From Argyresthia goedartella (Eukaryota; Arthropoda; Insecta; Lepidoptera; Argyresthiidae): a stretch of 64,000 nt of DNA. The notes under the pieces were generated by a model. That model did not search any database. It had not been told where the DNA came from and saw nothing but the letters and a program-made list of their open reading frames with translations. The stretch covers positions 27,510,001 through 27,574,000 of the forward strand of contig OX463813.1 in assembly GCA_949825045.1 (NCBI GenBank). Reading direction: 5' to 3'. The translations under genes and the position numbers were made by a program. Shown here in pieces: positions 22,159 to 61,076 of this stretch; within the stretch, counting starts at the first letter, position 1; every line of letters starts with the position of its first letter.

Positions 22159-22164
22159 TCAAAT

Positions 22165-24267: not shown

Positions 24268-24315
24268 TGCAGATCTATTCATTCCGACTTCGAATTTGTA
24301 TCGAAAGCGCTGATA

Positions 24316-26550: not shown

Positions 26551-26805
26551 TCAACAACATCTACAACAACAAATACACTTGCATCCTGGTCATTAACCCT
26601 ACCAGTCTCCTATTCTTCGTGTCCTCCGCTTCCTTTTTTACTTAACCTGTGTTTTATAAAAAACCTGTTCTCATCTCATCCATCCAGCATCGTACCATTT
26701 TTTTATCGTCCTCGCTGTAAATAACTAATAAACTGTTACTACTAAATTTTATCCTGGTTGTTTTCTGTTAGGTTCTGGTAGGTTCTTGTCGTCACACGAT
26801 AACTG

Positions 26806-27620: not shown

Positions 27621-27684
27621 ACAGGAAAAAACGGAAATTAGTTCTAAATCTACAATTAACGAACTCGAAGTCTACCAAACGTGT

Positions 27685-28613
27685 GTGTCAGCGATACCTA
27701 CACAAACACATAGCGAGGCGACGAATTCAATATCGGTCATCAAAACATTGCTTGCGTCGCGCAGTTCGTTAGAGCATATTACAAGAATAATCAGTTGGTT
27801 GCTGAGATTTAAAGAAAAAAGAACTTCGAAACGAACATTTGAAAACTATCTGGAACTGCAAGAACTTGAAAAAGCAAGAAACATTGTCATCAAGGCCACC
27901 CAAACGGAAGAATTTGGAGATGACTTGGAAAACATAAAGAAAACTGGATCCGTTAGCAAGAAAAGTCAACTTCTGCAACTGTCACCCTTCATAGACGACA
28001 ACGGTATACTGAGAGTTGGAGGATGTTTACAAGTTTCAGCGCTACACTACGATACGAAAAATCCTATTATTCTACCTCACAGCAGCCGCCTAACTGAACT
28101 GGTCATCGAGCTGACCCACAAGCAAACTTTGCACGGCGGTCCCCGCCTAACGTTAACCAAATTAAGGCACCGGTATTGGGTCGTTGGAGGAAATAGAGCT
28201 GTGAAAAAACAACTCCGGCTTTGTATCCTTGCCATAGATACAAATCTAACAAGACCGAACAGATCATGGGAAATCTGCCGAGTGTAAGAATAACACCGTC
28301 GCTCCCCTTCACTCACACAGGGGTAGATTTCACCGGGCACGTGGAGATAAAAATAAACAAAGGCAGAGGAGTGAAGACAAGCAAAGGCTACATAGCCATC
28401 TTCATCTGCATGGTCACGAAAGCCGTCCATATAGAACTCGTGTCGGATATGACGTCATCAACATTCCTCGCGGCTTTGAAGAGAATGTGTGCCAAAAGGG
28501 GTACCCCAAAACATATGTACTCAGATAATCATTTCCTAACGGGAAGTCCCATCATGTCACTGTACCAAGATGACCACTGTGACATTAAACATATCGATCT
28601 CAGGAACAGATAG
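27685..28613 (+). pseudogene. Bel/Pao integrase, truncated
   Basis: First frame to 28287: a zinc-binding-like stretch with LTHKQTLHGGPRLTLTKLRH and a later cysteine. Second frame from 28250: GVDFTGHVEIK (first catalytic Asp) and PKHMYSDN (second Asp). The region that should follow with the catalytic Glu is missing; the sequence jumps to the C-terminal domain, so the enzyme cannot work. Confidence 0.8.
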
Positions 28614-28624
28614 AGATTAACAGA

Positions 28625-28960
28625 AATGATGCATCAACACTTTTGGAAAAGATGGTCCAATGAATACCTTCATCAACTACAACTTCAAACAAAATGGCAA
28701 CAGAAACGAGAGAACCTGAAAAAGGCGATCTTTTACTAATAAAGGAATCAAACCTGCCACCTGGAAAATGGGCTATGGGAAAAGTGATAGACCTATTTCC
28801 GGGAAGCGACGGCAACACACGGGTCGTCACTCTGAAAGCTAAGGGTGGTACACTGAAACGACCTATCAACAAACTGGCCCCACTACCGAGCAACACTTTA
28901 GAACCAGAAGTCAAGCTGGATTCCCAAGAAGAGCAAAAGAAGCCAACCCCAACAATGAAG
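28625..28960 (+). pseudogene. Bel/Pao pol C-terminal domain
   Basis: HQHFWKRWSNEYLHQLQ and then GDLLLIKESNLPPGKWAMGK and RPINKLAPLP, the conserved C-terminal domain after integrase in Bel/Pao elements. Spliced by deletion to the truncated integrase. Confidence 0.8.
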
Positions 28961-29790
28961 GAGTCTCGAACCAGAGGAAGCAAAATCAACAGCTTCATGG
29001 CATGTATCATGTTAACGCTGCTAACCGTACCAATCAGTAGCGCCGCTACAAGAACAACAGCCTACAGCATTAACCCAATAGACGGGAATCGACCGATCTA
29101 CTTCGATGAAATCGGCAACATACAACTGATATACGACAAGTGGTCTCTACTGGTTTATTACGACCTCACATCATATTGGAACACAAAAAAAAACATCAAA
29201 CTCTACATCGATCAAATACCAAGCTCTTCACTCCAGCTCAGCTGATATAGCAACTCAATCACATATCAACTAGAATGACAAAACGACTATTTCTATCCGT
29301 CAAGAACTTTCAGCAAAACATTAAAGAAATGTACAAACTTATCTACGTAAAAGCAAGAATATATGACAACTACCTATTCTTCGAGTAACACTAACCGCTT
29401 ATAAGCGATGACGAATACAAATTATATCGCGCGATACCTATTACGATGAAGAGGAACAATACCTATATCACCGTAAAGCAATCGCCAAAGTACATCGCTA
29501 CAAACATCATGAAGAACACATTCATAAACCTGAAAGAAGAGGACATCCAACAATGTATGACATCTAAAAATAACCTTTTATGTCAAGCATACCATCCCAT
29601 CTACAACACAAACGGAAACAAAATACTATGCGCAGCAAAAATTATAAGTCACCAGACTGGAAACCAAAGGTCGAACAAGTTCCTTGCACCGACAAATGGA
29701 TCAAATTACATCAACAAAACATATGGCTGTTCACTTATTGCGGATCGTGTCAACTTCGAGTGATATGCGAGAATCAAGTTGCAGAATGTA
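28955..29790 (+). pseudogene. Bel/Pao env-like remnant
   Basis: A hydrophobic leader (SFMACIMLTLLTVPISSA) is followed by PIYFDEIGNIQLIYDKWSLL, which looks like the N-terminus of F-type envelope-like proteins found in insect retroelements. Later frames (29446-29763, 29580-29897) hold cysteine-containing pieces such as LLCQAYHPIY. Several stops and frameshifts separate them; the copy is inactive. Confidence 0.6.
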
Positions 29791-29862
29791 GCTTAATTAC
29801 ATTAATAACTAAGGTACATTACTTACATTATAACTGTTGTTCTGTAGCTGCTGTCGGGAGCA

Positions 29863-30112
29863 TGTACAGGCCAACGCCTTGCACAATACTTACTTAGCAA
29901 TTATTATTGTATAATTTTAGCAATCTCTTATACCTAACTGCCACTTACTTACATCAACTACTAGTGAACAGAACCGAACCACATCAGCGTTCTACTTTTG
30001 TATTACTTGATAATAAACGTCAGTTATTAAACTAGCTGGATGTAACTACAACTATCCTACCCCTAACGAACGAAGCAACGGGCTGCGGCAACAAGACCTG
30101 ACGGCCCATACA
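29863..30112 (+). repeat. Bel/Pao 3' LTR
   Basis: 250 bp starting TGTACAGGCCAACGCC and ending GGCCCATACA; near-identical to the 5' LTR with substitutions and two compensating single-base indels. Confidence 0.92.
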
Positions 30113-42700: not shown

Positions 42701-45700
42701 CTCTCGGAAGGTTTGACCACTGGTTAACCCCTCGTGTGGTTGAGGCAAGCAGATCTTTTCAGTGGTTTTGGAATTTATCACCAAGCCACAAGGTTGAAAA
42801 TATGACGGCAAATATATATATATATATATATATACAGGGGTGTCTCATTGAAATCGGTCAGTATGGGAAAGTCTGAAACTATAAGACATACGAAGATCTG
42901 TTCTTAGGAACCATGTCATTGATTTTAATAAGATGAAAAACTGCATTCATACATTTTAAAAAACCTTTACTCGGCTCGGGAATCGAACCCGGTGGTTTTG
43001 AAAAAAAAAACTTAGACTATTTCTGTTTAGATATCGATTGTGTAGGTCTTAAGCAGTAAAAGGCTCTATGAAACATGATGTCTAAAATGAATAAAATGCA
43101 TTGTTTTCACATACTTTAACACTTCCCAATACCCTGGACATAATAACATTCATGATTAATTATTCCATTCAATCATCAACTTTTCCCGATCTATGGAAGG
43201 CTGCGATAGTCCGGCCTATACCTAAAAAAGCAAACCCTGCAGACGTTAATGAACTACGGCCAATAAGTCTACTTTGTTGCCTCTCTAAATTACTAGAAAA
43301 GGCTGTATCAGTGCAACTTACTCGATATCTGGAAATTAACAGAATCCTCCCTTGTTTGCAATCTGGATTCCGAAAATCCCGGAGCACTGCCACGACCCTA
43401 CTTGACGTAGTAGATAATATTATAGCCTCCCAAGATATAGGTAAGGGTACATTGCTGACTTTACTTGATTTTTCCCGGGCGTTCGATGCTATTAATGTTG
43501 CGCTGCTATTGTCAAAATTATCCTTTTATGGTTTCGAATCAAGCACTGTTGCCTGGTTTCATAGCTACCTAGAAAACCGGACCCAGCGTGTGGAAGTTCG
43601 CAGAGGAGACGGCTCCGTCTTGTCCTCAGCTGATTCTCCGATTACGAGAGGCGTTCCACAAGGATCAATACTTGGCCCCATACTATTTATATAGTATGGG
43701 GCCAAGTATTATATATATATTTATATATTATATAGCGCTGACATTACTCGTTGTTTAGAGAACTGTTCCTATCATTTGTACGCAGACGACTTACAAGTAT
43801 ACTTATCCTTTAAACCAGACGAAACCTCTGCTGCTACTGAAAAGATCAATCAAGATCTCCATCGTATTGTCGCGTGGTCCACTCAAAATAGTCTAATGCT
43901 TAACCCCAATAAATCAAAATTTATGGTCATTGGAAGTAAAAAACAAATAAATAATATAATTTCTCACAAGCCTGAAATCAAAATCATGGAAAAGAGCATC
44001 GAAAGGGTTGACGAAATTCGTAACTTGGGGTTGCTGATGGACAGTACCCTCAGATTTGAGAAACATGTCGCAAATACAGTGCGTAACTGCTTCTATCGAT
44101 TGAAAATACTGTACAAAATTAGGCCTTTCCTCAGCATAGATCTTCGTGTGCAGCTGTGTGAATCCCTTGTGCTTTCGAAACTAAATTATATGGACACGGT
44201 ATATGACGCGCGCCTTCTGAACCGATCTGAACGTCTACTTCAACGTGTTCAGAATGCGTGCGCCAGGTTCTGCTTCAACGTACCCCCCCGCGCTCATGTC
44301 ACCCCTTATATCAATAAGTCCAATCTTCTAAAACTTAGCGCTAGAAGAAATCTTCACTTTGCGACGCTGTTGTTTGGAGTAGTAAGATTTCAGGTTCCGG
44401 AATACCTTTACTCTAAACTTAACTGGTCCCGTAGGAACCCGACTAACTCAAGAGCAGCCACGTCTCTGCTGTCGTGTCCAAGACACAAGACTGCTGCATT
44501 CCGTGGTAGTTTTCGCTATGCTGCAACCAAATGCTGGAATAATATACCACCCCCGTTTCATGATCTGAAATCAATTAGCTCCTTCAGACACAAGCTCAAG
44601 GCACATTTGTTAGCAGCACAAAAAACCATACTATAGGACAGAGCACAGTTGACTTCACCAAATACCTCTACATAGGTATACATATATACATAATAGGTCT
44701 ACCCAAACTCTCACTCTCTCGCAGTCTCACATATTTCCACTACTTAAGCTACACTACTCACTTACCCCAACATTTAACATATGACTGTATGATTGGATTG
44801 TTTGTATGTCTGTTTTTTAACATATGATTGGCTTTATTTATATTATTTTATTTTAATTTCCGATCGTTTCTTGTTGTTGCATTTTGCCACTGGTGCATAA
44901 TTATGCTTGAGCTCTTTCTGCGTATTTACTTTTACTCAGATTATAAGTTTAGTTTTAAGTTTCTAGTTTTAGGAAATGGTGTGAGCTGAAAACCAGCGTT
45001 ACGAGCAGCTCACTGCTACACGTAACACATGCTGAGCTCAAACCATTTTGGCATCTAAAAACCTCAACCCCGAACTGTACTATGGTTTCTTTTTCTTTCT
45101 GTATATCCTTGTGTTTATTTGTCAAATAAATATATTTCTATTTCTATTCTATTTCTATTTCATTCAGTAATCACGTCATAAATTTTTTGTCCTATACAAA
45201 AAAAATATGACGTGATTACTGAATGGGAAATTTATTTTAGTAGGTGTGATTTAACGCCTCTTGACTATTTCTTGTGGGGTTACGTTAAGGATGAAGTGTA
45301 CAAAATAAGCTATAACACCGTTGAAGACGTAAAAGCAACCATAGAGACAATTTTAACGCAAATTCATCACATGAAAATACAAAATGCAATTGTAAGATCG
45401 TTACCTAAACGTGTTGAATATTGTATTGAAAAAACGGTGGTCACTTCGAACACCTACTAAAATAAATTAAAGTATGTGAAAACAATGCATTTTATTCATT
45501 TAAGACATCATGTTTCATAGAGCCTTTTACTGATTAAGACCTACACAATCGATATCTAAACAGAAATAGTCTAAGTTTTTTTTTTCAAAACCACCGGGTT
45601 CGATTCCCGAGCCGAGTAAAGGTTTTTTAAAATGTATGAATGCAGTTTTTCATCTTATTAAAATCAATGACATGGTTCCTAAGAACAGATCTTCGTATGT

Positions 45701-48700
45701 CTTATAGTTTCAGACTTTCCCATACTGACCGATTTCAATGAGACACCCTGTATATGCCACCGTAAGATTATCAAAACCGTTAGTTTAGAATCTAACGTTT
45801 TTTCTCGTTAGTTTACAAACTATCGATAAAATTGTGAACTGTACGGTACTGCTTACTATATGACGCGTTAGTTTATAATAACACCGTTGAATTGTGAACT
45901 GGTTTAAACTTGAATGGCAAAGTAAAGACCAGGGCAAACACTGCGGTAGCTTAGGTGAAGACTAGAGGCGGCGAGCGCAGTGAAGCCCCCGACTAGTCTT
46001 CGGGTTAGGTTTATATGTAAGAACAAAAGAAACGTAAATTCTAAATCCTGTCGGTCTGGTTTACAATTTGTCGATAGTTTACAAACTAACGTGTTAGTTC
46101 ATAAACTAACGGATTTTACAATCTTACGGTGACATATATATAGGCACTACATTACTTCTGGCACCACATAGGATACCCTGTCAAGGAAAGGAAAGGAGGT
46201 AATTCTGAGTCTGGAATTATCTGAAATGAGCGAAAGAAATACTGAATTGTGCGAAAAATAAATTACGGGAAAAAAAAAATAACTGGCTTGCGTTGGCTAA
46301 ACCAGATAATATTTTTTTCGCTAAATTTGGCTAAATAAAGACTGACTGGTGTCTGGGCAAAGTGGTGGGTCAGGGTAAGTGAAGGATAAAGGGGGTGAGC
46401 GAAGCGAAGCCGTCTTTATCCTTCGTGTTAGGTTACACATGTAACATCAACAAGATCCAACGGGCGTTTTGTTTTTCTATCCTATTCGAATTGAAATTTT
46501 CAAGTTGCTGTTTTTCAGATTTCTAGTCGCGTAATTCGTTAATTTTCCAGACAAAACTAGTATTTCTAGTCGAGCTCAGCTTGTCGCGCAATTAATGAAT
46601 TTTTTCAGGCAAAATCAGTCAATTTGACAATCAAAAACCAGATATATGGTTGGACGTTTAAATACTACCATTAATAAAATGACTGATGAAAGCAAAATAT
46701 ACAGACTCTCACCTAAACTGTCGACACCTTGAGACTCCTTGGTGCCCGTCAGCGGAACATTCGAGGTTTCATCCTGTCGCCGGTTGTCCTTCTCACTCTT
46801 ATCTGAAACAACCACGAGAGTGACAGGGATGTGACAGAAGCTGTATGGATATTCTCCTGTTAGCGATTGCCAGCAAGCTTTCAAAAAGTCATCATTGAGT
46901 TACACCGCTCTGGTCAAGTCTAAGGTGGATTATATAAGGAATATGATCCACAGAAATAAACTAAACCATTCATTGCTTCCGACCTAAAACTAAAATAGCC
47001 TATCACGTGGGAAGCTGAAACAAACCTCAAACCTGTATTTTGTGTCAAAGGCAAAGTCAAAGTACTTTATTACTGTAGATTTATTTATACTTAGCTAACG
47101 TCATTTTTTGCCTCTTCTCTACATTAAACCACTGTGGGAGGAGAAGGGCGTAGAAACTCCCACAGATTGATTTTTAGATCTCTTTTAAAAATAGGTTGTG
47201 CTTAACTAATACAAATATAAAAAAAATATTTTTAATAAGCAGGAATAAATAATTACAAAATTATTAACAGCAAGGTCTGTGTTGAGCGAGATTAACCCCA
47301 TACAGTCCTGTCATTTAAGTAATCTCGAACATTACTGGGTCAAAAACATGTGTGGGTATCGTCACGTTAACGCTAACTAAACTCTGGCATAAGAAAGCTG
47401 AGAACGAGCGCCAAAAGCATGTCAACCCCATATTTACGATCTGACGAGTGTGGCGTACGGACACTTGTCTGAGCCGAGCGCGACGAAATATTTGAACGTC
47501 TCAGCTTTTTTGCCCGAGTCTATCTTATTTCATCGTCAACAGCGGCGTCAGAAATATACAAAATAAGTACCTATATATCAACAAAGATAACTTACTATTG
47601 TTGTGTTTGCAGTGGCGGCAACAGAACACTGCGGCGGACATGGAGGTGATGAGTAGCACTATACCCACAGCCGCCACCACCACCAGGAGGACAACTGACA
47701 GCTCCACTCGCACCGGGACTAGCGCTGGAGAAAGATGACGATTCAATTATATGCAATTCTTCTTAGGGTTCCGTACCCAAAATGTAAAAACTGGACCCTA
47801 TTACTAAGACTCCGCTGTCCGTCTGTCTGTCCGTCTGTCACCAGGCTGTATCTCATGAACCTTGATAGTGAGACAGTTGAAATTTTCACAGATGATGTAT
47901 TTCTGTTGCCGCTATAACAACAAATACTAAAAACAGAATAAAATAAATATTTAAGTCAACATCTCATACAAACTTATGAACAAGTAGCCGCACCAATAAC
48001 TTTGTAAAGAACATTTTGCTATGTAAAATCCAAACTATTCACTCCACACCATACCGTTCCGTACCATTGTACGGTGGTACGGAACCGGAGTTGGACTCGC
48101 ACTTGACCGTTTTTTTAATGTATAAAGCAGTCTGACAAAAATTTGCTAACGGCAAATGGAAAAAGGGCCAATGTCACGTGTTTTGGTGAATTGACCAAGC
48201 GAGCGAACGGCTCTGTTCCAGGATTGGGCAAAAATGCTTTCGTATTTCCGTATGTTTTCCTCTAAAGGGCGCATTTCTCAACGGATTCTCGTGTTTTTTG
48301 TGAGCAGGTTCGGTAATTAAATACATAGGTCGGGACATATGTTTTGTCACATATCTGAAACTTCGAAGTTAGAACTCGAACCAAAAAAAATATGAGCATC
48401 CGGAATACGATAATATTAAGAAACTGAATTTTCAAAAATGGAGTGGACGCGATAAGACTATAGGTAGGCCATACATTTTTCTCAGACATATATATTTTTT
48501 AAATTTTATTTTGAAAATTAGATGATCTTGATATAGAAAGGGAGCGAAGGGTGTTGGCCCGCAGATTTGCGTGTTGTGGGAGGGCTGTCAAGGTGACTTT
48601 ATTTACTCTGAGGGTCAGATACAAGCAGAAGTCGACGACGCCCTTCGCGTATAACAATGGTTTCAGAATGTTGTTGGAGCTGCCGCGTTCTTGCAGTGTA

Positions 48701-51700: not shown

Positions 51701-54700
51701 GCCATAGCGTTCAAGAATATAAGTTAAAACCCCATGATTTACATGATCAAAGGCTTAAGATAGATAGACCTTTCGACTTTAAACCATCAATAAGGCCCAC
51801 AAGACTCTGAGCATTCCCTTTTTTATTTCCTTTAATAGTTTTGTTTGCTATGCTCCAACTGGTATTTATTTTGTTGTTTGAAGATAGAATTAAACCCTTC
51901 TTATTGATCGCGCGTACCGCTACTGTTATTAGTTAGCTCAGTACCTGTTTTTCTCACCGGGTAATTGAGCAGACTGTTGCTTAGTGTGAAGGGGTTGCTC
52001 GCTCCCTTCTTGTTGACCACGCGCATCGCTAACGTGAGCACGAATGTACTTGTTAGATGAGTACCTGTATGTCTCTCTGGGTACATGAGCAGACTGCTGC
52101 TCAGTGTGAAGGAGTTGCTCGCCCCCTTCTTATTGATCGCCCGCACCGCTACTGTGAGCGCACCGCTCGCCGATACCCCCGACACCACGAACTCCGCACT
52201 CTCGCTTGAGACGTTCGTGAGGAGCTGCCCGGTGCTCGCGTCATACAACTGAAGAGAAACTGATATACAGCTAGGAAAATATGGCTTTGAATGAAATTAG
52301 ATTTTTGGCTTCTGAGAGAAATTCTGAAGTGGAATGACTTGACTTTTGTTCAAAGTAGTACGCAGGAAGCCTTTAATACAAGGAGTTAAAATCTTTCTGC
52401 GTAGTTGAGAATCTCATTTTCTTTTAAATTGATATGATAGCTGCCAAAATAAACGTAAGTTATCAAGAAGTTAGCATTCTTACGGCCGATTTTACAAGAT
52501 GATACTTAAGTGAAATGCATCTTAAATCGCATGCAGATCAAATGTAATTACTGGCTAAACGTGGGCACAGCTGTGCCTCTGTTACCGCGTACGGGAAAAG
52601 ACGCTGTACCTATTAGTTTTATTATTGCTGTACAAGGTGATATCATTTTATTATCTTTGGCCCGGAAATACAACAGACAACTCAAAGTTTGACAGACACA
52701 TAGCCATGCTGTCCCTGTCCCGCGCTTAGGAAATGAAATCGCCAATTATGTGTCACCTGTTAAAATAAGTGACACCTGCCAATTTATGAAACCTGTCAAT
52801 ATTAACGACACCTGTCAAAATTAGTGACATCTGTAAAAAATCATAAAGATGTAATATTGAGTGCAGCTATGCCACAGTCAAATTTGGGTCAACAGGGTAG
52901 CCCCCTGATGACTTCACCGCAGCTATGAAAAAAAATTGAAGACATCAAGCGCTTTTAAGTATAGGCATGTGAAACATACGGGTTGAGAATAAATATGCAT
53001 AGAACATACCTGCCTGGCAAAAAGTACCCGTGGAAATTAAACGTGTAGAAAATGTAACTACTGGTAACATAACGGTATAAACGCAAATGGAACCAAAAAT
53101 ACTGGGAATAGATTATTTTGGAAATGTTATCTATACAGTTTTTAAATGAGAAAATACAACAAAACAAACATAGTGTCACACTTTTTTCCATGCGGGATGA
53201 AAGAGGCACTGTTTTTTGGACTCACCTCCAGTACAAAAGTCTGCCGGATCCCTCCGTCGTGTCCCGGCGTGCAGTTCAGCGTCAGAGAGTCGTATGTGAC
53301 GTTCGTGACCTCACACGCCTTCACCGGAGACGGCTTATCTGAAAAAACAAAACTCTGTTACTCACACTACTACAGGCACCTAAAAATTACCCAAACACAT
53401 GACCTCAAAATCAGAATCCTCGTTATTTGGGAGCTCAAATTGAGCACAAAATTCCCTGCAAACTACTGCCAACTTCACAGACCCTCAAACTTTGTGGAGA
53501 GACATCTGCTAATGTTAGAGTATCTGGTGCTCAAAACCCTTAAATGTAGAAGCATGTGGCATATCAAAAGCAAATGAACCACATGACAGTATTTAGCTCT
53601 TAAACTATCTATTTACAATATTGAAATAGTCACAATCTAGGACCGATCTCCCGATTTATATTAAACTTCATCTTAGTCTACTGATCCAGTCTGTTTAAAC
53701 GTTGAACCCGTGACATTTGGCGACGTTCGACGCCACAGAGGTGGTTTTGGTGATGATGATGATGATATCGAGGATGCCTTCGAAGCCGTATTTGGCCACG
53801 GCTACAGCTTTGTGAGGTCCCTGGTTTGTTTCTCTATGATCATACCAAAGACAAATAAACAGGAACCTCACAGAGTAGTCATCTTGGCCGAATCCGAGGG
53901 AAGTTACCTGCGGGCATGATGTGGAACAAGCACGGCTTGATCTGTCTGCCGACACTGTTGGCGCCGGAGCACTGAACCCAGCCGTAGTCAGCTGACGTGT
54001 TCACCATGTACGTGAACGTCCCTGGGCGATAAGAGAAGAAAATTACTATCATTCACGTACAGTTAAATTGTTCCTGGACAAGGAAGCAAGGACACCTTGT
54101 GGAGATGGGCAATTAGAATTAACGATGTCACAAACATATCATGCACAACTCTATGTAGATATATATCATCATTTTTAGGGTTCCGTACCTTAAAAGGAAA
54201 AAAAAGAATCCTTATACGATCACTTTGTTGTCCGTCTGTCCGTCTATCAAGATATTTTTACCTAGATAATGCTGAAAAAATTGGATTTTCGTAGTACTTG
54301 TAAGGGAACCAAAACCTATAGGTTACTTTCCGTTGACCTAGAATCATGAAATTTGGCACAGAGCAAGGTCTTATAGCACAAGTAAAGGGAAAAGTCTGAA
54401 ACCTGTAAATTTCTGTCAATCTGTCTGTTATTTTTGACTCACTGTCTGTAGCACTGGTCCGCATACGCGTTTCTTGATACTGTATGTAGGCAATGCAACT
54501 TTTTCGATCACGTGATTTAAGCTTACCTATATATCAGCCACTATTCAAACAGTCTGCCTTCAGCCTAAACGTGAGTACAGCTTTGCGGATCCTTTGGCTT
54601 GCGGTAATAGGTGGAACTAATGCTTTTCGACTGTTTCGGTGCATGAAGTTGCGCAGAACTGGCACCATCCTGTAAACGTTGCTCACGCGCCAAAATATCG

Positions 54701-56421: not shown

Positions 56422-59400
56422 TTGATGATGATGATGATATGAAGATGTCTGTCTGGAGTGTGTTCTCACCTGCGGGTTGGCGACGAGGTCGCACTGTATG
56501 TGCAACAGCTCACCGCGCGCCGCTCGCAGCAGCGCCGGCACCGCCCCGCGGCAGCTCGGCGCGACTGCAACACAACGATGTTAGTGATCCACACCTCCTG
56601 GGTAAATGGAAGCTCCTTGTAGCTACATTGACTTAACTCAACTACCTAGTTCTTTGACTCAAAAGGGTTTAATCTTATGTTGTGAGACTTGTGGGTAGTC
56701 ATCTTCTGTCTTGCTTTGCGCTCCTGGTATAAAGTTCGCGCCAAGTTTCTTGGCTATACTTGCCTAGGCGAGAAAGAGAGGTCACAGTTCGCTCTGAGAC
56801 AAATAAACATGGCGCGGCCTGTAACTAAGTTTCGAGGATGCTAGGTAGAGTAATTTTCTGAGTTGCTGTACGCTGTTAGATATATCTAATATACTTGTCC
56901 CAATGGATAGATGGTAAGTTGTGTGGGTATTTTATTTGAATGTTGTGAGAACGGATATCGCTGCTCAAGTCTTTCAAGCTACAAAGCCTTGTCTCCAAGA
57001 TCTGGGCTTCCTAGGAAAACACATCAGATACCGCTATGGTACGTATATAAGAACAAAATAGTATAAGGGTGCAACAGAAGACTGCAATAATTTTTGAGGT
57101 GGTACCTATACGTACCTACTTATGTAAACAGAAATTAAAAGTCTTGTAAACTAGGCCAGTCTACTTTAGACCTAAGCATTTATTTGAAGTTTACCTATGT
57201 AGTTTGTGTCTAAATATATTAAGTCCTCTATTAGCAGCATTGAGTTGCTCGTGTCTCATCCCAGCTTAGTAGGACTCATCACAGATGCCCTCACCCCTCC
57301 AAGATTCTTAGGAACAAGAAGAAACAATGATACACCAAGAGTACAAAGCAGCAATGGAGCTACTCACACTTGACATCAAGCATCAGCCGCTCGCTCTGCC
57401 CCTCTCCCAGCGCGTTCCTCGCCACGCACACATACGCGCCGGCCACCGCACGCGACACGCGCTGCAGGACTAGAGACTGGTTCGCTAACAGCACGCCGGG
57501 ACCTGGCTTCACTATTACACCCTGCCGAGAAAATCGGTAGTGCCAAAATATAATGCCAATGTAAAAGTATATAGTCTTATTGGAAGATCCAGGAAGAGTT
57601 CCAAATAACACTGGCATCACGGCATCACCAATCACGCCCTAGAGACAAAAGCTTCGTGAATAGGTAAAACAACAGCCTCAACAACCCAGAAGGAAGGCTT
57701 GGTCGTGACCAGGGCCCGTATTCTACTATTAGCCAATTGGCTCAGAATAATGCCTCGTACTTCATACCGATAAAAAATGGAGTGGTTCGCATTCCACCTA
57801 CCGGACTGCATCCACAACTACTACATTCTCCAGATCTATAGTGCTGATCAGGGAACTGTCAACTATATTCTTCAACTATTCGCCTTTCTTCCTTTCCCAT
57901 AGGAGAGAAAGCTCTTTTAGCTTGCATTAACGATGATACTCAGATGGAGTCACTGGGACCTTCAGACTTAACAGTGGTAGATTGTACTCATGTTATGCGT
58001 AAAATACACGTGTGTTATTCTTTGCCGTGTGTGTGTAAGTACTCACGTTGTGCGTGAAGTGCACGTGTGTATGTGTCGGGTTGGCGCGCACTCTGCAGTC
58101 CAAGTACACGTCGGATCCCTCAAGCACTTGCCGCGCGTCCAAATTTGCTCCCAGCTCCAATTTGCTCACTGGATAGTCTGGACATACAATAAAAGGTATA
58201 GATATACGTCATCATCATCATTACTTACTTACTGTTCCTTTGGCTTTCAACCCAAAATTTTAATAAGAATTATTAAGAAATCCGTAAATAAGATTGAAAG
58301 ATGACGAAGATATTCCGGTGAGGGACTGCTAATTGCACCCGAGTTGCGCAGGACCGAGAATAATGTTTGTTAATTGGTTTAAGCGAAGCACTTAAATTAA
58401 AATTAAATAGCCGATTAGTTTGACAGGTGGCTATGATTAGCGTAGTGATTAAGATCACTAGCTGAGTAGAAGCCGAAACAAGGAAACAGAAAGCAGCTTG
58501 GAAGATGGGTAGATAGTATTACCGGCTAAGTTGGCACAAAAAGGAGGAGGCTTATATAGTAGTAGGCGGAAACAAGCTGCCGAAGATGATGATGTTTCAT
58601 TTAGCTTTAGATAGCATCTTCGTTACAGGGGTAAAAGTTTGAGCAGCCTTTGGATTGCCTCTTTATTATCAGATTGGACTTACTGCAGTACACCTTCGAA
58701 CGACCTTAGGTGGATTATGGTAAAGAAAAAGAGCTCCGTGGTGGTAGAGGTGGTATTGGTTTCATGCTAGCTTCTCACGCAAGAGATGCAGATTCGATTC
58801 CGGTGCTGACCATGTACCAATAAGATTTGCCATATATTATTATCGGATATTTCGTGTTTCGGATGACTCGTTTAGCTGTTATTCCGGCTACTATCGCGAT
58901 TTGGTAGCAGTAGTCGTAAAACCCCTCCATAAACCCGCACTGAGCCCGCGTGGTATGGTTCAATCTTACTCGTGTCCGCGCAAACGCTTGTGCCCCTCGG
59001 TGGGGACATTAATGAGCAACATGTATTACCCTTTCTTATTAGTGTTCAACACTCACACTGCACCTCCATCTTCCACCCATCTTCACTCGTCTCCCGTGCT
59101 TGTGCGTTGTCCCGTGTCGAGGTGTGCTGTGCCGCGCGACACGACAACACGCGCCCCTCGTCCTCTATGGCCGGCGTGAACTGCAGCACGCTGTTCGTGA
59201 CGTTGCCGTCCACTGATGTCTGCGGACAAACCAACAAACTGTAACGTTGTAAGTTACCGTTGTCTTCACTCTATCATTAACTGGTCTTATTTTAAATTTA
59301 AGTAGTAATTCTCTTAATAAAACTACCAAATGAGGCTAGTAATCACAGTATTAATTTTCACGCGCTGTACTAGCAACATTCCACTGTTGACAACTCACTC

Positions 59401-61076
59401 GCTCTGCTATGATTGGCCCGTTTTAAACTAACTAGCCGTGACCGCAACTTGACTTTGCGGCGCCGGCGTGATTCCGAAAACTCACTCAGCACTATACGCA
59501 CGTCCGTCCTACTGGCGCTCTGTAACGGTCCCTTTTTACCGTACGCCGACGAACGACTCTAAACAGTAATTACTTACGTTTAATCATAACGTACTACTAG
59601 TAGTTACGTTTTAGTTTTGTCTGTGCTTCATATTAACCCCGATTGAGTTCGGGGTTCCTGGCACCTCTTCGGGATCACCGCTTTTCCTCGCTACCCTACG
59701 GTTTCCCGGTTCCTGACACCGCTTCGGGCTAACCTGCTTCCCTGCTCCGGCTGCATTCGGACCGTTACTTCTCCGACGTCAGCGGCACTCCGACTACGGC
59801 AAAACCCGCAGGGAAGATTCGTTGCTGCGTAACCAGGGTCAGACTACATTTGGAGAACCCACGTTAAATAAAATTTCTTGTTGGCTACCTATTTGGAATC
59901 TTTTTATTCCTCTCCAAGTAGGGACGTCACGACGTCACGACGTCCCTACTTGGAGAGGAATAAAAAGATTCCAAATAGGTAGCCAACAAGAAATTTTATT
60001 TAACGTGGGTTCTCCAAATGTAGTCTGACCCTGGTTACGCAGCAACGAATCTTCCCTGCGGGTTTTGCCGTAGTCGGAGTGCCGCTGACGTCGGAGAAGT
60101 AACGGTCCGAATGCAGCCGGAGCAGGGAAGCAGGTTAGCCCGAAGCGGTGTCAGGAACCGGGAAACCGTAGGGTAGCGAGGAAAAGCGGTGATCCCGAAG
60201 AGGTGCCAGGAACCCCGAACTCAATCGGGGTTAATATGAAGCACAGACAAAACTAAAACGTAACTACTAGTAGTACGTTATGATTAAACGTAAGTAATTA
60301 CTGTTTAGAGTCGTTCGTCGGCGTACGGTAAAAAGGGACCGTTACAGAGCGCCAGTAGGACGGACGTGCGTATAGTGCTGAGTGAGTTTTCGGAATCACG
60401 CCGGCGCCGCAAAGTCAAGTTGCGGTCACGGCTAGTTAGTTTAAAACGGGCCAATCATAGCAGAGCGAGTGAGTTGTCAACAGTGGAATGTTGCTAGTAC
60501 AGCGCGTGAAAATTAATACTGTGATTACTAGCCTCATTTGGTAGTTTTATTAAGAGAATTACTACTTAAATTTAAAATAAGACCAGTTAATGATAGAGTG
60601 AAGACAACGGTAACTTACAACGTTACAAAACATTCATATACTATTTATTTTTTTTCTTCTAGAGCTTCGCCGCTATTGGATTTTGGCAGTCAACTCCGAA
60701 TATGCCTCATGATCTTTCGCCAAGCGGAGCAGCTCGTCGGCGCTGGCTCTATTTATAGAGGGTGTTGTAAAATTTTAAGGGGGTTTTAAGGACATTATTC
60801 GGAGCGCAACTGACCATGGATTTCGTCTCTCATTCCAAGCCATATGTTATCTGTCATAAAGAAAATGACAGCGTCAATATGGCATAAGCTAGGCTAATAG
60901 ATAGATATTTGAGGTGATACTCACAGATTCTCTCGCAGTCTTCAGCCTTGTGTTGCCCCGCCACCAGGAGATGTCCGGTTTGGGCCGCGCGCCCACCGCC
61001 TGGCACGTGAGCTCCGTGCTGCGCCCCGCCACCAGGGGGCGCGCGCCGCTCAGCAGACGGACCCACAGCGGAGGCA
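33735..61076 (-). CDS. Sidestep-family Ig-superfamily transmembrane protein, 5' end outside window
   Basis: Sixteen exons (listed separately) join in one continuous frame of 728 residues plus stop; every boundary has AG/GT and every phase matches its neighbour. Order: three Ig domains, one FN3 domain, a hydrophobic membrane segment, then a cytoplasmic tail of about 285 residues. Recognition rests on Sidestep-family landmarks: EDGW closing one Ig domain, [11 protein letters not shown] linking the last Ig to FN3, DGG and NKKG in FN3, and DKNPDLIPL in the tail. In Drosophila, Side and its paralogues are surface ligands for Beat receptors in motor axon guidance and synaptic matching; which paralogue this is cannot be told. 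The signal peptide and first Ig domain should lie beyond 64000, because the first exon here starts in phase 1. The introns are loaded with mobile DNA. The last exon is the least certain part. Other Ig-superfamily types such as nephrin-like proteins fit less well. Confidence 0.8.
34545..34625 (-). repeat. AGGGTTCCGTAC repeat, fragment
   Basis: ATAGCGGCAACAGGAATACA and TCTGTGAAAATTT are the inverse of the 3' part of copies 2, 4 and 6. Confidence 0.65.
35179..35228. repeat. 22-bp perfect hairpin with 6-nt loop
   Basis: Arms 35179-35200 and 35207-35228, loop ATTCTT. Confidence 0.93.
35385..36137 (-). mobile_element. LINE family A copy 1, 5'-truncated
   Basis: The minus strand reads ADVATSRLV, then [20 protein letters not shown] and [20 protein letters not shown]; the same words occur in the copy at 40440-41225. 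The 3' UTR (35400-35560) matches the copies at 37925 and 47045. Its 5' edge reaches to within about 8 nt of the Sidestep-like exon 15 donor. Confidence 0.75.
35787..35838. repeat. 23-bp perfect hairpin with 6-nt loop inside a LINE copy
   Basis: Arms 35787-35809 and 35816-35838 (core CCCAGTACCCACACTGTAC), loop AACACA. Confidence 0.93.
36145..36260 (-). CDS. Sidestep-like exon 15: cytoplasmic tail
   Basis: 116 nt, phase 2 in and phase 1 out, GTTGACAG acceptor and GTGAGT donor. It encodes [20 protein letters not shown] and a glycine/arginine-rich end. It is very G+C-rich. A LINE fragment begins within about 8 nt of its donor, and a degenerate CACCTGTCA repeat begins in its acceptor region. Confidence 0.62.
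36256..36540. repeat. Degenerate ACACCTGTCAAAA repeat array A
   Basis: About ten half-regular copies at roughly 20-bp spacing (ACACCTGTCAACAG, ACACCTGTCAAAAC, ACACCTGTCATAAT, AGACCTGTCCAAAG, ACAGCTGTCAAGAT and others). Most contain an E-box (CANNTG) or a one-base variant. The array begins at the acceptor of Sidestep-like exon 15. Confidence 0.7.
36680..37024. mobile_element. GTCACCGTAAGAT-family MITE, copy 2
   Basis: GTCACCGGAAGATAGTC at left, GACTATCTTACGGTGAC at right. Inner short inverted repeats of GTTGATCAACT. Lies in the intron between Sidestep-like exons 14 and 15. Confidence 0.78.
37091..37224 (-). CDS. Sidestep-like exon 14: cytoplasmic tail
   Basis: 134 nt, phase 0 in and phase 2 out, TTTTCTGTAG acceptor and GTGAGT donor. 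It encodes [19 protein letters not shown] and then [15 protein letters not shown]. No domain is recognised. Support comes from an open frame, good splice sites and phase agreement on both sides. Confidence 0.62.
37270..37430 (-). repeat. Second SINE type, copy
   Basis: TGTGTCGTGGGAACAACG, ACATATAAACATCCAAGACC, then GGGATTCGAACCC (inverted B box). Confidence 0.65.
37925..38170 (-). mobile_element. LINE family A copy 2, 3' end only
   Basis: CTACATTGGACCACTGTGGG and following sequence through GCAGGAATAAATA match the 3' UTRs at 35460 and 47120. No coding part remains. Confidence 0.7.
38170..40430. other. Long intronic stretch without recognisable content
   Basis: Inside the intron between Sidestep-like exons 13 and 14. 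No domain-like ORF on either strand and no repeat shared with the rest of the window seen. Confidence 0.4.
40440..41225 (-). mobile_element. LINE family A copy 3, RT fragment
   Basis: The minus strand gives [20 protein letters not shown] and VLFADN (the catalytic box reads FADN in place of FADD), then [20 protein letters not shown] and DVATSRLV. A stop near 40939 and a shift separate the blocks. The 3' end is cut and replaced by a TTCTTA microsatellite (about 40425-40450). Confidence 0.8.
41265..41505 (-). repeat. Second SINE type with full tRNA-like head
   Basis: On the minus strand the head (41505-41430) has A box TGGCCGAGTTGG and B box GGTTCGAGTCC spaced as in a tRNA, but no intact cloverleaf is claimed. 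The body includes AACATCC and TCTTGGGTACTAG and recurs at 5040-5215 and 37270-37430. Confidence 0.65.
41776..42034 (-). CDS. Sidestep-like exon 13: proline-rich cytoplasmic tail with internal repeat
   Basis: 259 nt, phase 2 in and phase 0 out, TTTCAG acceptor and GTGAGT donor. It starts [16 protein letters not shown] and contains two tandem copies of a 19-residue unit (AHLSNxGTDCxxPRPP as the core), then [13 protein letters not shown]. The proline-rich motifs could bind SH3-type partners; that is inference. Confidence 0.75.
42325..42547 (-). CDS. Sidestep-like exon 12: cytoplasmic tail with DKNPDLIPL
   Basis: 223 nt, phase 1 in and phase 2 out, GTCCCCAG acceptor and ACAG|GTGCAC donor. It encodes [12 protein letters not shown], which I recognise from Sidestep-family tails, and a serine/aspartate/tyrosine-rich stretch including [13 protein letters not shown]. 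An earlier GTTAGG donor at 42344 would end the exon in phase 0 and break the frame of the next exon, so the later donor was chosen. Confidence 0.75.
42811..42834 (+). repeat. (TA)n microsatellite at mariner insertion site
   Basis: About 12 TA units directly before the left terminal repeat; a natural target for a TA-specific transposon. Confidence 0.9.
42835..43119 (+). repeat. Mariner-type terminal inverted repeat, left
   Basis: About 285 bp; ends in CACATACTTTAA where the LINE begins. It contains GGGAATCGAACCC near 42977-42994, a tRNA B-box-like segment. Confidence 0.88.
43120..45175 (+). mobile_element. CR1/Jockey-type LINE nested in the mariner-type element
   Basis: It carries RT motifs [29 protein letters not shown] and [14 protein letters not shown] up to 43694, then YADDLQVYL and the thumb to 44636, ending [18 protein letters not shown] and [14 protein letters not shown]. 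The RT is interrupted at about 43686-43735 by a short inverted duplication. The 3' UTR runs to a TTTCTA-type tail near 45160. It belongs with the LINE at 30113-31455. Confidence 0.82.
43667..43710. repeat. 19-bp inverted duplication in the LINE RT
   Basis: 43667-43685 is repeated inverted at 43692-43710, with 6 bp between and A/T-rich filler after it. It breaks the RT between LGPILFI and the YADD block. Confidence 0.9.
45161..45225. repeat. 20-bp hairpin at the LINE/transposase junction
   Basis: CATTCAGTAATCACGTCATA (45161-45180) and its inverse (45206-45225) with a 25-nt spacer, just after the LINE tail. Confidence 0.92.
45212..45460 (+). pseudogene. C-terminus of a Tc1/mariner-superfamily transposase
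   Basis: [20 protein letters not shown] is the conserved C-terminal catalytic block (SCDLTPLDFFLWG type, third acidic residue). It is followed by a helical tail ([13 protein letters not shown]) and a stop at 45460, seven bases before the right repeat. The start is an internal remnant, not a true initiation site. Confidence 0.8.
45467..45750 (-). repeat. Mariner-type terminal inverted repeat, right
   Basis: Inverted copy of 42835-43119, ending ACACCCTG before TA. Confidence 0.88.
45756..46133. mobile_element. GTCACCGTAAGAT-family MITE, copy 3
   Basis: GCCACCGTAAGATTATC at left, ATCTTACGGTGAC at right. It starts four bases after the mariner-type element, sharing its TATA flank. The centre holds CACTGCGGTAGCTTAGGTG, the shared core. 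Confidence 0.78.
46713..46802 (-). CDS. Sidestep-like exon 11: cytoplasmic tail
   Basis: 90 nt, phase 1 in and phase 1 out, TTTCAG acceptor and GTGAGA donor. It encodes a charged hydrophilic stretch ([17 protein letters not shown], ending QGVDSLG). It has no recognisable domain; placement rests on phase and order. Confidence 0.7.
47045..47345 (-). mobile_element. LINE family A copy 4, 3' end only
   Basis: Shares the CCACTGTGGGAG segment and AACAGCAAGGTCTGTGTTGA with the other copies. Lies in the intron between Sidestep-like exons 11 and 10. Confidence 0.72.
47596..47724 (-). CDS. Sidestep-like exon 10: transmembrane segment
   Basis: 129 nt, phase 1 in and phase 1 out, CTCCAG acceptor and GTAAGT donor. 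It encodes about 28 hydrophobic residues ([20 protein letters not shown] and on) followed by CCRHCKHNN, a basic cysteine-containing stop-transfer end. This places the protein as single-pass type I with the Ig/FN3 part outside. Confidence 0.85.
47764..48092 (+). repeat. AGGGTTCCGTAC repeat, copy 4
   Basis: AGGGTTCCGTACCCAAAATG at the left; ends CCGCACCAATAACTTTG and CATTGTACGGTGGTACGGAA. Intronic in the Sidestep-like gene. Confidence 0.78.
48545..49075 (+). mobile_element. LINE 3' fragment of another family
   Basis: [38 protein letters not shown] and [17 protein letters not shown] fit the C-terminal region of LINE ORF2 proteins. A deletion after VKVTLF and a stop at 48748 break it. The tail (48900-49060) is A/T-rich and ends in AATAAACGTTATTGAACTG-type sequence. 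Confidence 0.6.
49369..49450 (+). pseudogene. THAP-type zinc-finger fragment
   Basis: ATG at 49369 starts [15 protein letters not shown], then NPDLLFVP and a stop after 26 codons. C-x4-C followed by N-P-D-x2-F-x-x-P is the opening of a THAP domain, found in host THAP genes and P-element-type transposases. The later histidine-containing part is not found in frame. Confidence 0.5.
49735..50850 (-). mobile_element. Jockey-type LINE, 5'-truncated
   Basis: The frame 50843-50061 (260 codons) reads [59 protein letters not shown] and [13 protein letters not shown], the RT thumb and C-terminus of Jockey-like LINEs, open to its stop. The RT catalytic part is absent. The 3' tail is a TAAA-rich run (49738-49775 on the plus strand reads TTTATTTTATT). 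Confidence 0.8.
50005..50060 (+). repeat. (GT)n-rich microsatellite
   Basis: GTGTGTGTGTGTGTGTGAG and a second GTGTGTATGTGTGTG; lies within the 3' part of the Jockey-type LINE. Confidence 0.85.
50870..51880 (-). mobile_element. Degenerate LINE pieces in shuffled order
   Basis: The minus strand has [20 protein letters not shown] and VWLKSYLG (RT middle; about 51760-51660), then a short GVPQ-like piece (about 51550), then an endonuclease-end-like [17 protein letters not shown] (about 51430-51390) and [14 protein letters not shown]. In a LINE the endonuclease end should precede RT, so the fragments are rearranged or from two copies. Confidence 0.5.
51895..52064 (-). repeat. Partial duplicates of FN3 exon 9 in its downstream intron
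   Basis: Directly after the exon 9 donor the segment encoding NKKGASN..LLNYPxRKTG recurs with its own ACAG|GTACT donor, and a second, shorter copy then begins. The shared CCCTTCTT landmark lies at 51895, 52004 and 52124, giving periods of 109 and 120 bp. The copies have diverged (for example VVNKKG for AINKKG) and neither carries the 5' part of the exon, so they are probably non-coding. Confidence 0.75.
52065..52248 (-). CDS. Sidestep-like exon 9: FN3 domain, second half
   Basis: 184 nt, phase 0 in and phase 1 out, CTCTTCAG acceptor and GTACTC donor. It encodes [15 protein letters not shown] and the FN3 F/G strands [14 protein letters not shown], ending [12 protein letters not shown]. The 3' two thirds of this exon, donor included, is repeated in degenerate form in the following intron (51895-52064). 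Confidence 0.82.
52752..52845. repeat. Degenerate ACACCTGTCAAAA repeat array B
   Basis: Five copies (TCACCTGTTAAAAT, ACACCTGCCAATTT, AAACCTGTCAATAT, ACACCTGTCAAAAT, ACATCTGTAAAAAA) at about 19-bp spacing in the intron between Sidestep-like exons 8 and 9. Confidence 0.72.
53226..53338 (-). CDS. Sidestep-like exon 8: FN3 domain, first half
   Basis: 113 nt, phase 1 in and phase 0 out, TTTTTTCAG acceptor and GTGAGT donor. It encodes [20 protein letters not shown] and then [14 protein letters not shown], the FN3 B and C strands with the family's DGG turn. Confidence 0.83.
53908..54021 (-). CDS. Sidestep-like exon 7: end of last Ig domain and linker
   Basis: 114 nt, phase 1 in and phase 1 out, CCCAG acceptor and GTAACT donor. 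It encodes [16 protein letters not shown] with the second Ig cysteine, then [17 protein letters not shown], which matches the Sidestep-family link between the last Ig and the FN3 domain. Confidence 0.83.
54176..54480 (+). repeat. AGGGTTCCGTAC repeat, copy 5
   Basis: AGGGTTCCGTACCTTAAAAG, CCGTCTGTCCGTC, then the copy 1 type of body. A related fragment (GTCCAACTCGCACTTGATCG) lies near 54975. Confidence 0.72.
55977..56070 (-). CDS. Sidestep-like exon 6: last Ig domain, middle
   Basis: 94 nt, phase 0 in and phase 1 out, CTACAG acceptor and GTGAGT donor. It encodes SYHWWFNSS, which supplies the Ig core tryptophan, followed by a linker with LNAAQNLPG. Confidence 0.78.
56378..56436 (+). repeat. (GAT)n microsatellite
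   Basis: About 18 GAT units with one GTT interruption; the histidine run read on the minus strand is an artefact of it. Confidence 0.93.
56470..56564 (-). CDS. Sidestep-like exon 5: last Ig domain, first third
   Basis: 95 nt, phase 1 in and phase 0 out, TTGCAG acceptor and GTGAGA donor. It encodes [19 protein letters not shown] and the cysteine in [13 protein letters not shown]. Its G+C content is much higher than the flanking introns. Confidence 0.8.
57368..57521 (-). CDS. Sidestep-like exon 4: second half of that Ig domain
   Basis: 154 nt, phase 0 in and phase 1 out. It encodes an L-x-L strand (SLVLQRVSR), the Ig signature [15 protein letters not shown] with the second cysteine, and the closing strand LMLDVK. 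The donor is GTGAGT. Confidence 0.82.
58047..58177 (-). CDS. Sidestep-like exon 3: next Ig domain, first half
   Basis: 131 nt, phase 1 in and phase 0 out, CCAG acceptor and GTGAGT donor. It encodes [19 protein letters not shown] and the cysteine in LDCRVRANP. The position where Ig domains usually have tryptophan reads YVHFTHN, so the core residue appears replaced by phenylalanine or shifted. Confidence 0.78.
58733..59008 (+). repeat. tRNA-headed SINE, copy 3
   Basis: Head GCTCCGTGGTGG, B box GCAGATTCGATTCCGG, tail TGCCCCTCGGTGGGGACAT. Ends about 48 bp from the Sidestep-like exon 2 donor. Confidence 0.72.
59057..59219 (-). CDS. Sidestep-like exon 2: second half of the Ig domain
   Basis: 163 nt, phase 0 in and phase 1 out, GTCCGCAG acceptor and GTGAGT donor. 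It carries [18 protein letters not shown] and the second Ig cysteine in VLSCRA, then a Sidestep-type EDGWKMEVQ ending. The acceptor lies only 20 nt from the end of the 1388-bp palindromic insertion. Confidence 0.82.
59240..60627. mobile_element. Perfect palindromic (foldback) element, 2 x 689 bp
   Basis: Arms 59240-59928 and 59939-60627 are reverse complements over their whole length with no mismatch or indel seen. The centre (59929-59938) is ACGACGTCAC within an 8-bp ACGTCACG repeat. The ends are TGTAACG...CGTTACA, flanked by AAAC at 59236-59239 and 60628-60631. No coding region is seen; each arm has an AATAAA about 60 bp from the centre. TGTNA-type ends with a 4-bp duplication recall Ginger-type DNA transposons (established knowledge, from memory) or LTR ends; the family is unresolved. 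Confidence 0.9.
60925..61076 (-). CDS. Sidestep-like exon 1 of window: first half of an Ig domain
   Basis: 152 nt, phase 1 in and phase 0 out. It is preceded by a pyrimidine tract ending CCCCCAG and followed by GTGAGT. It encodes [11 protein letters not shown], the first Ig cysteine in ELTCQAVG, and the core tryptophan in DISWWRG. The second cysteine is in the next exon, about 1.7 kb away. Confidence 0.8.

What the first reader, a model, noticed from the sequence alone, without database searches (positions are those of the whole stretch)
59236..60631. Perfect 1388-bp palindrome with its own target duplication
Two 689-bp arms are exact reverse complements; I checked both end to end and saw no mismatch, and the end coordinates agree to the base. 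The ends are TGTAACG/CGTTACA and AAAC flanks both sides, so it moved or was copied in as a unit. Perfect arms mean it is very young or kept identical by conversion. No coding region is present. Ginger-type DNA transposons (TGTNA-type ends, 4-bp duplication), a foldback element, or two LTRs joined tail to tail (AATAAA sits about 60 bp from the centre in each arm) are all possible; the family may be undescribed.
Basis: partly seen in the sequence, partly recalled or inferred. Interest (0 to 1): 0.9.

Follow-up and report, generated by a model that had tools for sequence, protein, structure and literature searches.

The report
Two retrotransposon ends joined into palindrome
This perfect 1,388-base palindrome, in a predicted intron of an immunoglobulin-domain gene, is two mirror-image copies of the control end (LTR) of a Gypsy-type jumping element; it was likely made when a half-finished DNA copy primed on itself during reverse transcription and was then probably inserted by the element's own integrase, and 16 more tail-to-tail LTR junctions in the same genome suggest that the family does this repeatedly.

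Summary
A search of the window's own 1.1-Gb genome settles what the arms are: each is bases 1-689 of a 692-bp LTR of a Gypsy-type retrotransposon with TG...CA ends, PBS, PPT, gag-PR-RT-RH-IN and 4-bp duplications. The palindrome is two LTRs tail to tail, with no PBS, PPT or coding sequence, and a U3 end outwards on each side. A pattern search finds 17 tail-to-tail LTR junctions (window included). In 13 of 17, one side runs through a full 18-nt PBS in a form seen in only 2 of 14 ordinary 5' LTRs scored, best read as a copy of the tRNA primer, and then turns back into U5: the mark expected of plus-strand strong-stop DNA folding back on itself. The window junction is a PBS-less variant with three GACGTC hexamers at its centre; its exact last step is open. 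The insert lies 20 nt from the acceptor of a predicted 1,705-nt intron and would give a 689-bp perfect RNA hairpin if transcribed. New variant of a known kind.

The parts
59236..59239 (.). target-site duplication AAAC, left copy
   Evidence: duplications are 4 bp in 9 of 11 direct LTR pairs of the family
59240..59928 (+). left arm = LTR bases 1-689, U3 end outwards; on this strand the LTR match runs on to base 691 (GACGTCAC)
59867..59872 (+). AATAAA (LTR position 628), likely poly(A) signal, T-rich after it
59929..59938 (.). centre ACGACGTCAC; with the arm tails it reads GACGTC AC GACGTC AC GACGTC; lacks the terminal A of the LTR and any PBS
59939..60627 (-). right arm = the same LTR, bases 689 back to 1, U3 end outwards
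59995..60000 (-). AATAAA of the right LTR (mirror of 59867-59872)
   Evidence: follows from the perfect palindrome
60628..60631 (.). target-site duplication AAAC, right copy
59220..60924 (-). predicted host intron (1705 nt with the insert), GTGAGT donor at 60924, CAG acceptor ending at 59220; the insert's end is 20 nt from the exon
   Evidence: flanking reading frames together give one Ig domain; no transcript data
60925..61076 (-). predicted host exon upstream of the intron (first half of an Ig domain); outer border read by eye from a CCCCCAG acceptor
59100..59219 (-). predicted host exon downstream of the intron (second half of the Ig domain); outer border not determined

Best explanation
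The palindrome is two LTRs of a Gypsy-type retrotransposon joined tail to tail and flanked by the 4-bp AAAC repeat; it was likely made during reverse transcription, when plus-strand strong-stop DNA (an LTR-only intermediate) primed on itself or on a second copy, and it was then probably inserted as one unit by the element's integrase using two U3 ends. Shown: the arm is LTR 1-689; the unit has no PBS, PPT or internal sequence; the outer ends are LTR U3 ends; the flanks are a 4-bp repeat like those of other copies; 16 other tail-to-tail LTR junctions exist, 13 of which carry the full 18-nt PBS on one side. Inferred: that this 18-nt form is a copy of the tRNA primer; that at this locus the plus strand stopped about one base short of the LTR end, before the primer copy; and that the self-complementary GACGTC tail served as primer. 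Mutual priming of two strands would give a linear duplex directly; folding of one strand would give a hairpin that must then be copied or opened. The centre holds more GACGTC units than either simple step gives, so one more slip or template jump is needed, whose nature is open. If the host intron is transcribed, the RNA would fold into a 689-bp perfect hairpin, a predicted Dicer substrate (untested).
For: Arm = LTR: 47 matches in the own genome, 40 of 838 candidates scored. LTR of 692 bp; 5' copies followed by a PBS, 3' copies preceded by the purine tract gggcgagggggtat. 4-bp duplications in 9 of 11 direct pairs and at 4 single LTRs. Gag, protease (just under its cut-off), RT, RNase H, integrase in that order from separate pieces of one copy. 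17 tail-to-tail junctions, 0 in the reversed-pattern control. In 13 of 17, TGGCGCCCAACGTGGGGC and then a turn into the U5 complement; among 14 ordinary 5' LTRs scored, 11 carry TGGCGCCCATAACGTGG, 2 the 18-nt form and 1 a hybrid. The product that I predicted for a 4-bp snap-back of the 18-nt end (loop 6) occurs letter for letter at C32 (I had seen that junction before writing the prediction). The return arms end at different LTR positions, which speaks for separate events. Two-U3-ended units with 4-bp repeats also occur at C1 (TGAC) and C20 (CCCA).
Against: The window centre holds no PBS, and one-step self-priming does not give its extra GACGTC units; my enumeration of 4-10-bp snap-backs from truncated U5-PBS ends gave no product with this centre (its three flagged 4-bp hits match only unfolded LTR). 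Some of the 13 need only 1-2 paired bases to fold as seen (read by eye), which is weak priming. Only 4 of the 15 other junctions fetched have a whole return arm, so the full return here is not the rule. Three of the 15 (L080, L082, L089) share about 500 bp of left sequence at 99.4-99.8%; their right borders differ, but the 17 may not all be independent. Joining of two cDNA ends is not excluded. How a hairpin would become a two-ended duplex was not shown. Integrase action on two U3 ends is inferred from flanks only. The primer as tRNA-Lys is recalled; the genome search for the tRNA gene did not complete (11 requests).
Confidence: 0.72

Rival explanations
1. Two separate LTR-only or LTR-ended cDNA molecules were joined at their U5 ends by host end joining (with a short templated insertion GACGTCAC), and the product was then inserted through its two U3 ends.
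For: The centre repeats 8 nt of the adjacent sequence, as templated insertions often look (recalled); both arms carry the commonest LTR haplotype, which two molecules could share (16 of 38 copies); several junctions show little pairing at the turn.
Against: The outer ends are exact U3 ends without PPT or internal sequence on either side, so both partners would have to be LTR-only strands; 13 of 17 junctions have the full PBS on one side only and end at the 18-nt copy, which fold-back explains more simply.
Confidence: 0.2
2. Ginger-type or other foldback DNA transposon moved by a cut-and-paste transposase.
For: TGTNR ends and a 4-bp duplication are shared by Ginger and Gypsy elements.
Against: The arms occur in direct orientation as LTRs with PBS and PPT around gag-PR-RT-RH-IN; AAAC is not a Ginger1 or Ginger2 target sequence.
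Confidence: 0.01
3. The palindrome arose in the chromosome after a solo LTR had inserted, by fold-back repair or by a second LTR insertion plus deletion.
For: Fold-back repair at short inverted repeats makes chromosomal palindromes (PMC10622511, passages read).
Against: Such a palindrome would carry flanking DNA in inverted copy or lack the direct AAAC repeat at the outer U3 ends; the flanks are unrelated beyond AAAC (10 of 40 complementary). Two-U3 units with their own 4-bp repeats occur at C1 (TGAC) and C20 (CCCA).
Confidence: 0.03
4. Assembly or missed-adapter artefact.
For: Perfect inverted repeats are a known artefact of hairpin-adapter long reads (recalled); no reads were available here.
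Against: Artefact palindromes mirror the flanks too and have no reason to stop at LTR ends with a 4-bp repeat; 16 further junctions with other centres and other borders occur.
Confidence: 0.03

Closest known systems
Gypsy/Ty3 (Metaviridae) LTR retrotransposons
   Same: The arms are an LTR of such an element in the same genome; LTR ends TGTAACG and CGTCACA fit the rGmr1-clade integrase motifs TGTNANR/CGTNACA (table in PMC3601003, passages read; checked); 4-bp duplications
   Different: Two inverted LTRs with nothing but 10 nt between them. The parent has RT-RH before IN, the standard Gypsy order; Gmr1 elements are recalled to have another order, so the end motif is no proof of clade
Solo LTRs
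   Same: LTR sequence only, flanked by a 4-bp repeat; 4 of these were seen in the same family
   Different: Two LTRs in inverted orientation; LTR-LTR recombination of a provirus does not give that
TRIMs and direct LTR dimers
   Same: Short, non-coding, LTR-bounded; a direct LTR-20 nt-LTR dimer with CTTT repeats exists here at C28
   Different: TRIMs keep a PBS and PPT between direct repeats (PMC6934838, passages read); this unit has inverted repeats and neither
Plus-strand strong-stop DNA of retroviruses and LTR elements
   Same: An LTR-only strand that starts at the U3 end and ends in an 18-nt copy of the tRNA primer (textbook knowledge, recalled)
   Different: Normally used for strand transfer, not inserted; here what look like self-primed forms appear as genomic insertions
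Fold-back inversions at short inverted repeats
   Same: Priming of a strand on itself at a few complementary bases gives a perfect palindrome (PMC10622511, passages read)
   Different: There the substrate is a broken chromosome; here a transposon DNA intermediate
Foldback DNA transposons such as C. elegans Tc4
   Same: Near-perfect palindromic element with long arms and a short centre (recalled)
   Different: Arms here are LTRs, not inverted repeats of a transposase-encoding element

Membership tests
Gypsy/Ty3 LTR retrotransposon (the family that gave the arms) | Direct LTR pairs with TG...CA ends | tested here: met
   692-bp LTR, 11 direct pairs examined
Gypsy/Ty3 LTR retrotransposon (the family that gave the arms) | PBS after the 5' LTR and PPT before the 3' LTR | tested here: met
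   identity of the primer tRNA not tested (search unanswered)
Gypsy/Ty3 LTR retrotransposon (the family that gave the arms) | gag-PR-RT-RNaseH-IN order | tested here: met
   pieces of one copy searched apart: Retrotrans_gag, RVT_1, RT_RNaseH, Integrase_H2C2 and rve; the protease match (23.8 bits) is just under its cut-off of 24.3
Gypsy/Ty3 LTR retrotransposon (the family that gave the arms) | 4- to 6-bp target duplication | tested here: met
   4 bp in 9 of 11 pairs; C15 and C17 without
Intact LTR provirus (for the window unit) | internal region, PBS and PPT between direct LTRs | tested here: not met
Ginger DNA transposon | TGTNR ends | tested here: met
   TGTAA
Ginger DNA transposon | TSD CCGG/CCGT (Ginger1) or RTATAY target (Ginger2) | tested here: not met
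   AAAC; definitions from PMC2836005 (passages)
Ginger DNA transposon | TIRs of 40-270 or 50-180 bp around a lone integrase-like transposase | tested here: not met
   689-bp arms; the parent has gag-pol between direct LTRs
TRIM | direct terminal repeats with PBS and PPT between | tested here: not met
   inverted repeats, 10-nt centre
Self-primed plus-strand strong-stop product | U3 end outwards on both sides, nothing before U3 | tested here: met
Self-primed plus-strand strong-stop product | 18-nt primer copy at the centre, full on one side only | tested here: not met
   absent at the window; present at 13 of 17 junctions genome-wide. So the window works like this class but is not filed as a plain member

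The most novel reading that the evidence does not exclude
This Gypsy family has a regular side route in which plus-strand strong-stop DNA primes on itself or on a partner, yields LTR-only palindromes with two U3 ends, and is accepted by the integrase; each such insert in a transcribed intron becomes a ready-made hairpin-RNA gene against the family's own LTR, so the element seeds its own RNAi control.
Probability: 0.2. Interest if true: 0.82.

Novelty: new variant of a known kind. Interest (0 to 1): 0.62.

Why it matters
Reverse-transcription intermediates are normally studied in infected cells or in vitro. Here the genome itself keeps at least 17 tail-to-tail LTR junctions, 13 with an 18-nt PBS form that is best read as a copy of the tRNA primer, so the fate of plus-strand strong-stop DNA and the ability of an integrase to use two U3 ends become testable from sequence. 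A perfect 689-bp inverted repeat in a predicted host intron, 20 nt from an acceptor, is also a clean natural test of how hairpin-RNA loci begin and how splicing copes with them.

Tried and rejected
Rejected: Ginger (TSD and anatomy); foldback DNA transposon (arms are LTRs); chance; chromosomal fold-back after insertion (flanks). My working idea before the genome answered, a single break at the GACGTC repeats folding with the 10-nt loop, is not well supported: DNA folds of the centre are no better than shuffles (z -0.49, -0.35, -1.18), and the LTR copies read have a single GACGTC before ACA (two have GACG followed by CCACA).

Led nowhere: an internal 19-mer of the arm matched 4 viral contigs and 8 prokaryote genome contigs, only around the motif and by chance; 3 further arm patterns in viral contigs gave 0; plasmids gave none; Rfam and tRNA scans of the window gave none; a protein search with the Ig exons gave none at E 0.001. 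Repeated words in the arm are on the whole not above shuffles. Paper searches: palindromic, inverted or self-primed LTR products, Ginger (20), TGTAACG (23), foldback and Lepidoptera (24), Tc4 (35), hairpin RNA (36), fold-back priming (41). Of these I saw the listings only, except passages of four papers. No listed title or abstract start describes integrated self-primed strong-stop palindromes; most subscription papers are not in that library, so this is weak evidence of novelty. A check for shared descent of the junctions found one group of three loci with a common left side.

Full report
Observation. The arms 59240-59928 and 59939-60627 are exact reverse complements over 689 bp with a 10-nt centre ACGACGTCAC, and AAAC flanks the unit on both sides. 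The symmetry ends exactly at TGTAACG/CGTTACA: of the next 40 flank positions 10 are complementary, as chance gives. No long frame (103 codons at most on the + strand) and no other copy in the window.

Surroundings. On the minus strand the unit lies inside a predicted intron with a GTGAGT donor at 60924 and an acceptor ending at 59220 (1705 nt filled; 313 nt empty, by subtraction of the 1388-bp unit and one AAAC). The reading frames on its two sides join to one immunoglobulin domain (Pfam C2-set_2 E 3e-9, ig E 1.4e-8; best solved relative SYG-2, E 2e-11). The end of the insert is 20 nt from the exon. In the filled site a loose branch-point motif occurs 31 nt (CTTAC, inside the insert) and 58 nt upstream of the exon; in the joined empty site only 79 nt upstream (motif matches, no proof). 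As RNA the unit folds into one long stem (-1415.7 kcal/mol for 1461 nt).

What the arm is. The own genome (1.1 Gb, 89 contigs; the window is C7:27510001-27574000) gave 47 matches, with only 40 of 838 candidates scored: 43 cover at least 687 of 689 bases, two of them being the window arms. I fetched 39 stretches that hold the other 41. They show that the arm lacks only the last three bases of a 692-bp LTR ending GACGTCACA; 5' copies are followed by a PBS, 3' copies are preceded by gggcgagggggtat. Eleven direct pairs were examined, ten spaced 5716-5724 bp and one (C18) 7831 bp (coordinates): 9 have a perfect 4-bp duplication, 2 (C15, C17) do not; the C10 pair is counted from an extra copy of the first LTR bases. 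Four single LTRs with 4-bp duplications were seen among the 17 loci. Separate pieces of one copy on C5 match gag and RT-RNaseH and, just under its cut-off, protease, and the integrase zinc-binding and core domains, in the Gypsy order. Of 38 LTR copies compared (those with intact start and GACGTC at 689), 16 are identical to the arm, 12 differ at one shared site and 10 by one or two bases in other combinations. These are the best-scoring copies, so they show recent activity, not the age of the whole family: LTR stretches in the junction loci are 91.3-100% alike to the arm's LTR. For the window unit, perfect arms need no gene conversion.

Ends. The LTR's own ends, TGTAACG and CGTCACA, and the palindrome's right end CGTTACA fit both integrase motifs of the rGmr1 clade (TGTNANR, CGTNACA). 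I entered 8 of the 11 groups of the table (PMC3601003, passages read); none of the other 7 fits at both ends. The class III motif TGT/ACA, not entered, would fit too, as it asks for little. Ginger ends are TGTNR too, but Ginger1 duplicates CCGG or CCGT and Ginger2 targets RTATAY (PMC2836005, passages read), not AAAC.

Sister junctions. A pattern for two LTR tails facing each other with 2-32 nt between them has 17 places in the genome and 0 for the reversed control. One is the window. Thirteen of 17 contain the 18-nt TGGCGCCCAACGTGGGGC, full on one side only, and then turn back into the U5 complement. C17:32462141 has a partial PBS, C19:986618 only its first bases, C75:572717 and the window none. 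The 18-nt form matters: of 14 ordinary 5' LTRs scored, 11 carry TGGCGCCCATAACGTGG, 2 the 18-nt form and 1 (L037) a hybrid; one search's search string missed L046 (common form), L025 (one base different) and L056 (masked beyond the first bases). So the junction centres carry what is best read as a copy of the primer tRNA, not of the RNA genome, which is the expected 3' end of plus-strand strong-stop DNA. That the primer is tRNA-Lys is recalled; eleven requests to find the tRNA gene did not complete. The product predicted for a 4-bp snap-back of that end (loop AACGTG) is present letter for letter at C32:2767488; I had already seen that junction, so this is a consistency check, not a blind prediction.

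How complete and how independent are they. In the 15 junctions fetched, the return arm is the whole LTR in 4 (C15, C17:32.46M, C19, C20:16.47M); it reaches the U3 end but lacks or replaces an inner stretch in 2 (C1:3.69M, C28:3.90M); and it is a U5-side part only in 9, often followed by a jump to other element sequence. C32:2.767M has a return arm with a large deletion. The arm lengths are ungapped and therefore lower bounds. The return arms stop at different LTR positions, but three loci (L080, L082, L089) share about 500 bp of left sequence at 99.4-99.8%, so I do not claim 17 independent events. A stand-alone two-LTR unit with two U3 ends and a 4-bp repeat is seen at the window (AAAC) and at C1:3.69M (TGAC, span 1377). 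C20:20.67-20.68M is a larger fold-back insertion with two U3 ends and CCCA repeats, and contains a head-to-head palindrome (516-bp arms, 8-nt centre) centred beside the PPT. C32:2.76M has a U5 and a U3 end with GATG repeats. C28:0.456M is a direct LTR dimer with CTTT repeats, span 1404, and C11:8.208M has an LTR-PBS-LTR tandem followed by the internal region.

Mechanism. Shown: LTR identity, orientation, absence of internal sequence, family-wide junctions and the 4-bp repeats. Inferred: origin during reverse transcription by self-priming of plus-strand strong-stop DNA, and insertion by integrase. For the window the strand would have stopped just before the LTR end; GACGTC is its own complement, so two such tails can prime each other and give a linear duplex with two U3 ends at once. 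The observed centre holds more GACGTC units than that simple step gives, so a slip, a template jump or a templated insertion must be added. I could not decide between them; DNA folding of the centre is no stronger than shuffles, and the enumeration of one-step snap-backs gave no such centre. End joining of two U5 ends is the main rival.

Novelty. Each ingredient is known (solo LTRs, strong-stop DNA, fold-back priming, TRIMs). I found no title or abstract start on integrated self-primed strong-stop palindromes in four open-library searches (listings only), which is weak evidence. I class it as a new variant of a known kind. The host species was not identified; the genome carries no name.

Noticed in passing
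window 42835-45750: 282-nt inverted repeats, 99% complementary, starting CAGGG(G)TGTCTCATTGAAATC and flanked by TATA-type sequence, enclose reverse transcriptase frames (43095-44636): an RT gene inside an inverted-repeat frame.
   Followed up: partly
window 21963-30062: BEL/Pao-like element (label recalled): 147-nt direct repeats 97% alike, DUF1759 and Integrase_H2C2 frames, with an internal array of 55-bp tandem repeats at 26095-26537.
   Followed up: no
window 6170-7021: Frame with a DDE_Tnp_4 transposase domain (E 9e-38), Harbinger-like (label recalled).
   Followed up: no
L024 (C20:20678640-20680800): A second kind of palindrome of the same family: head-to-head, 516-bp perfect arms, 8-nt centre beside the PPT, plus a fold-back inside the LTR (positions 506/584).
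   Followed up: partly
L040 (C28:456133-457853) and L052 (C11:8207919-8209640): Direct LTR-PBS-LTR dimers with about 20 nt between the LTRs; L040 stands alone with CTTT repeats.
   Followed up: partly
L022, L032, L037 against L026, L029, L033 and others: Two forms of the primer binding site in one family, TGGCGCCCAACGTGGGGC and TGGCGCCCATAACGTGG, with a hybrid in L037; fits primer-copied against genome-copied strands.
   Followed up: partly
L080, L082, L089 (C7:26924110-26925700, C13:20804410-20806000, C29:3426920-3428510): Three junction loci share about 500 bp left of LTR position 407 at 99.4-99.8%, unlike the arm's U3: perhaps an LTR subfamily with another U3, or copies of one source.
   Followed up: partly
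window 51932-52159: 120-bp tandem duplication (82% alike) inside a minus-strand frame 51901-52296, perhaps a duplicated exon.
   Followed up: no
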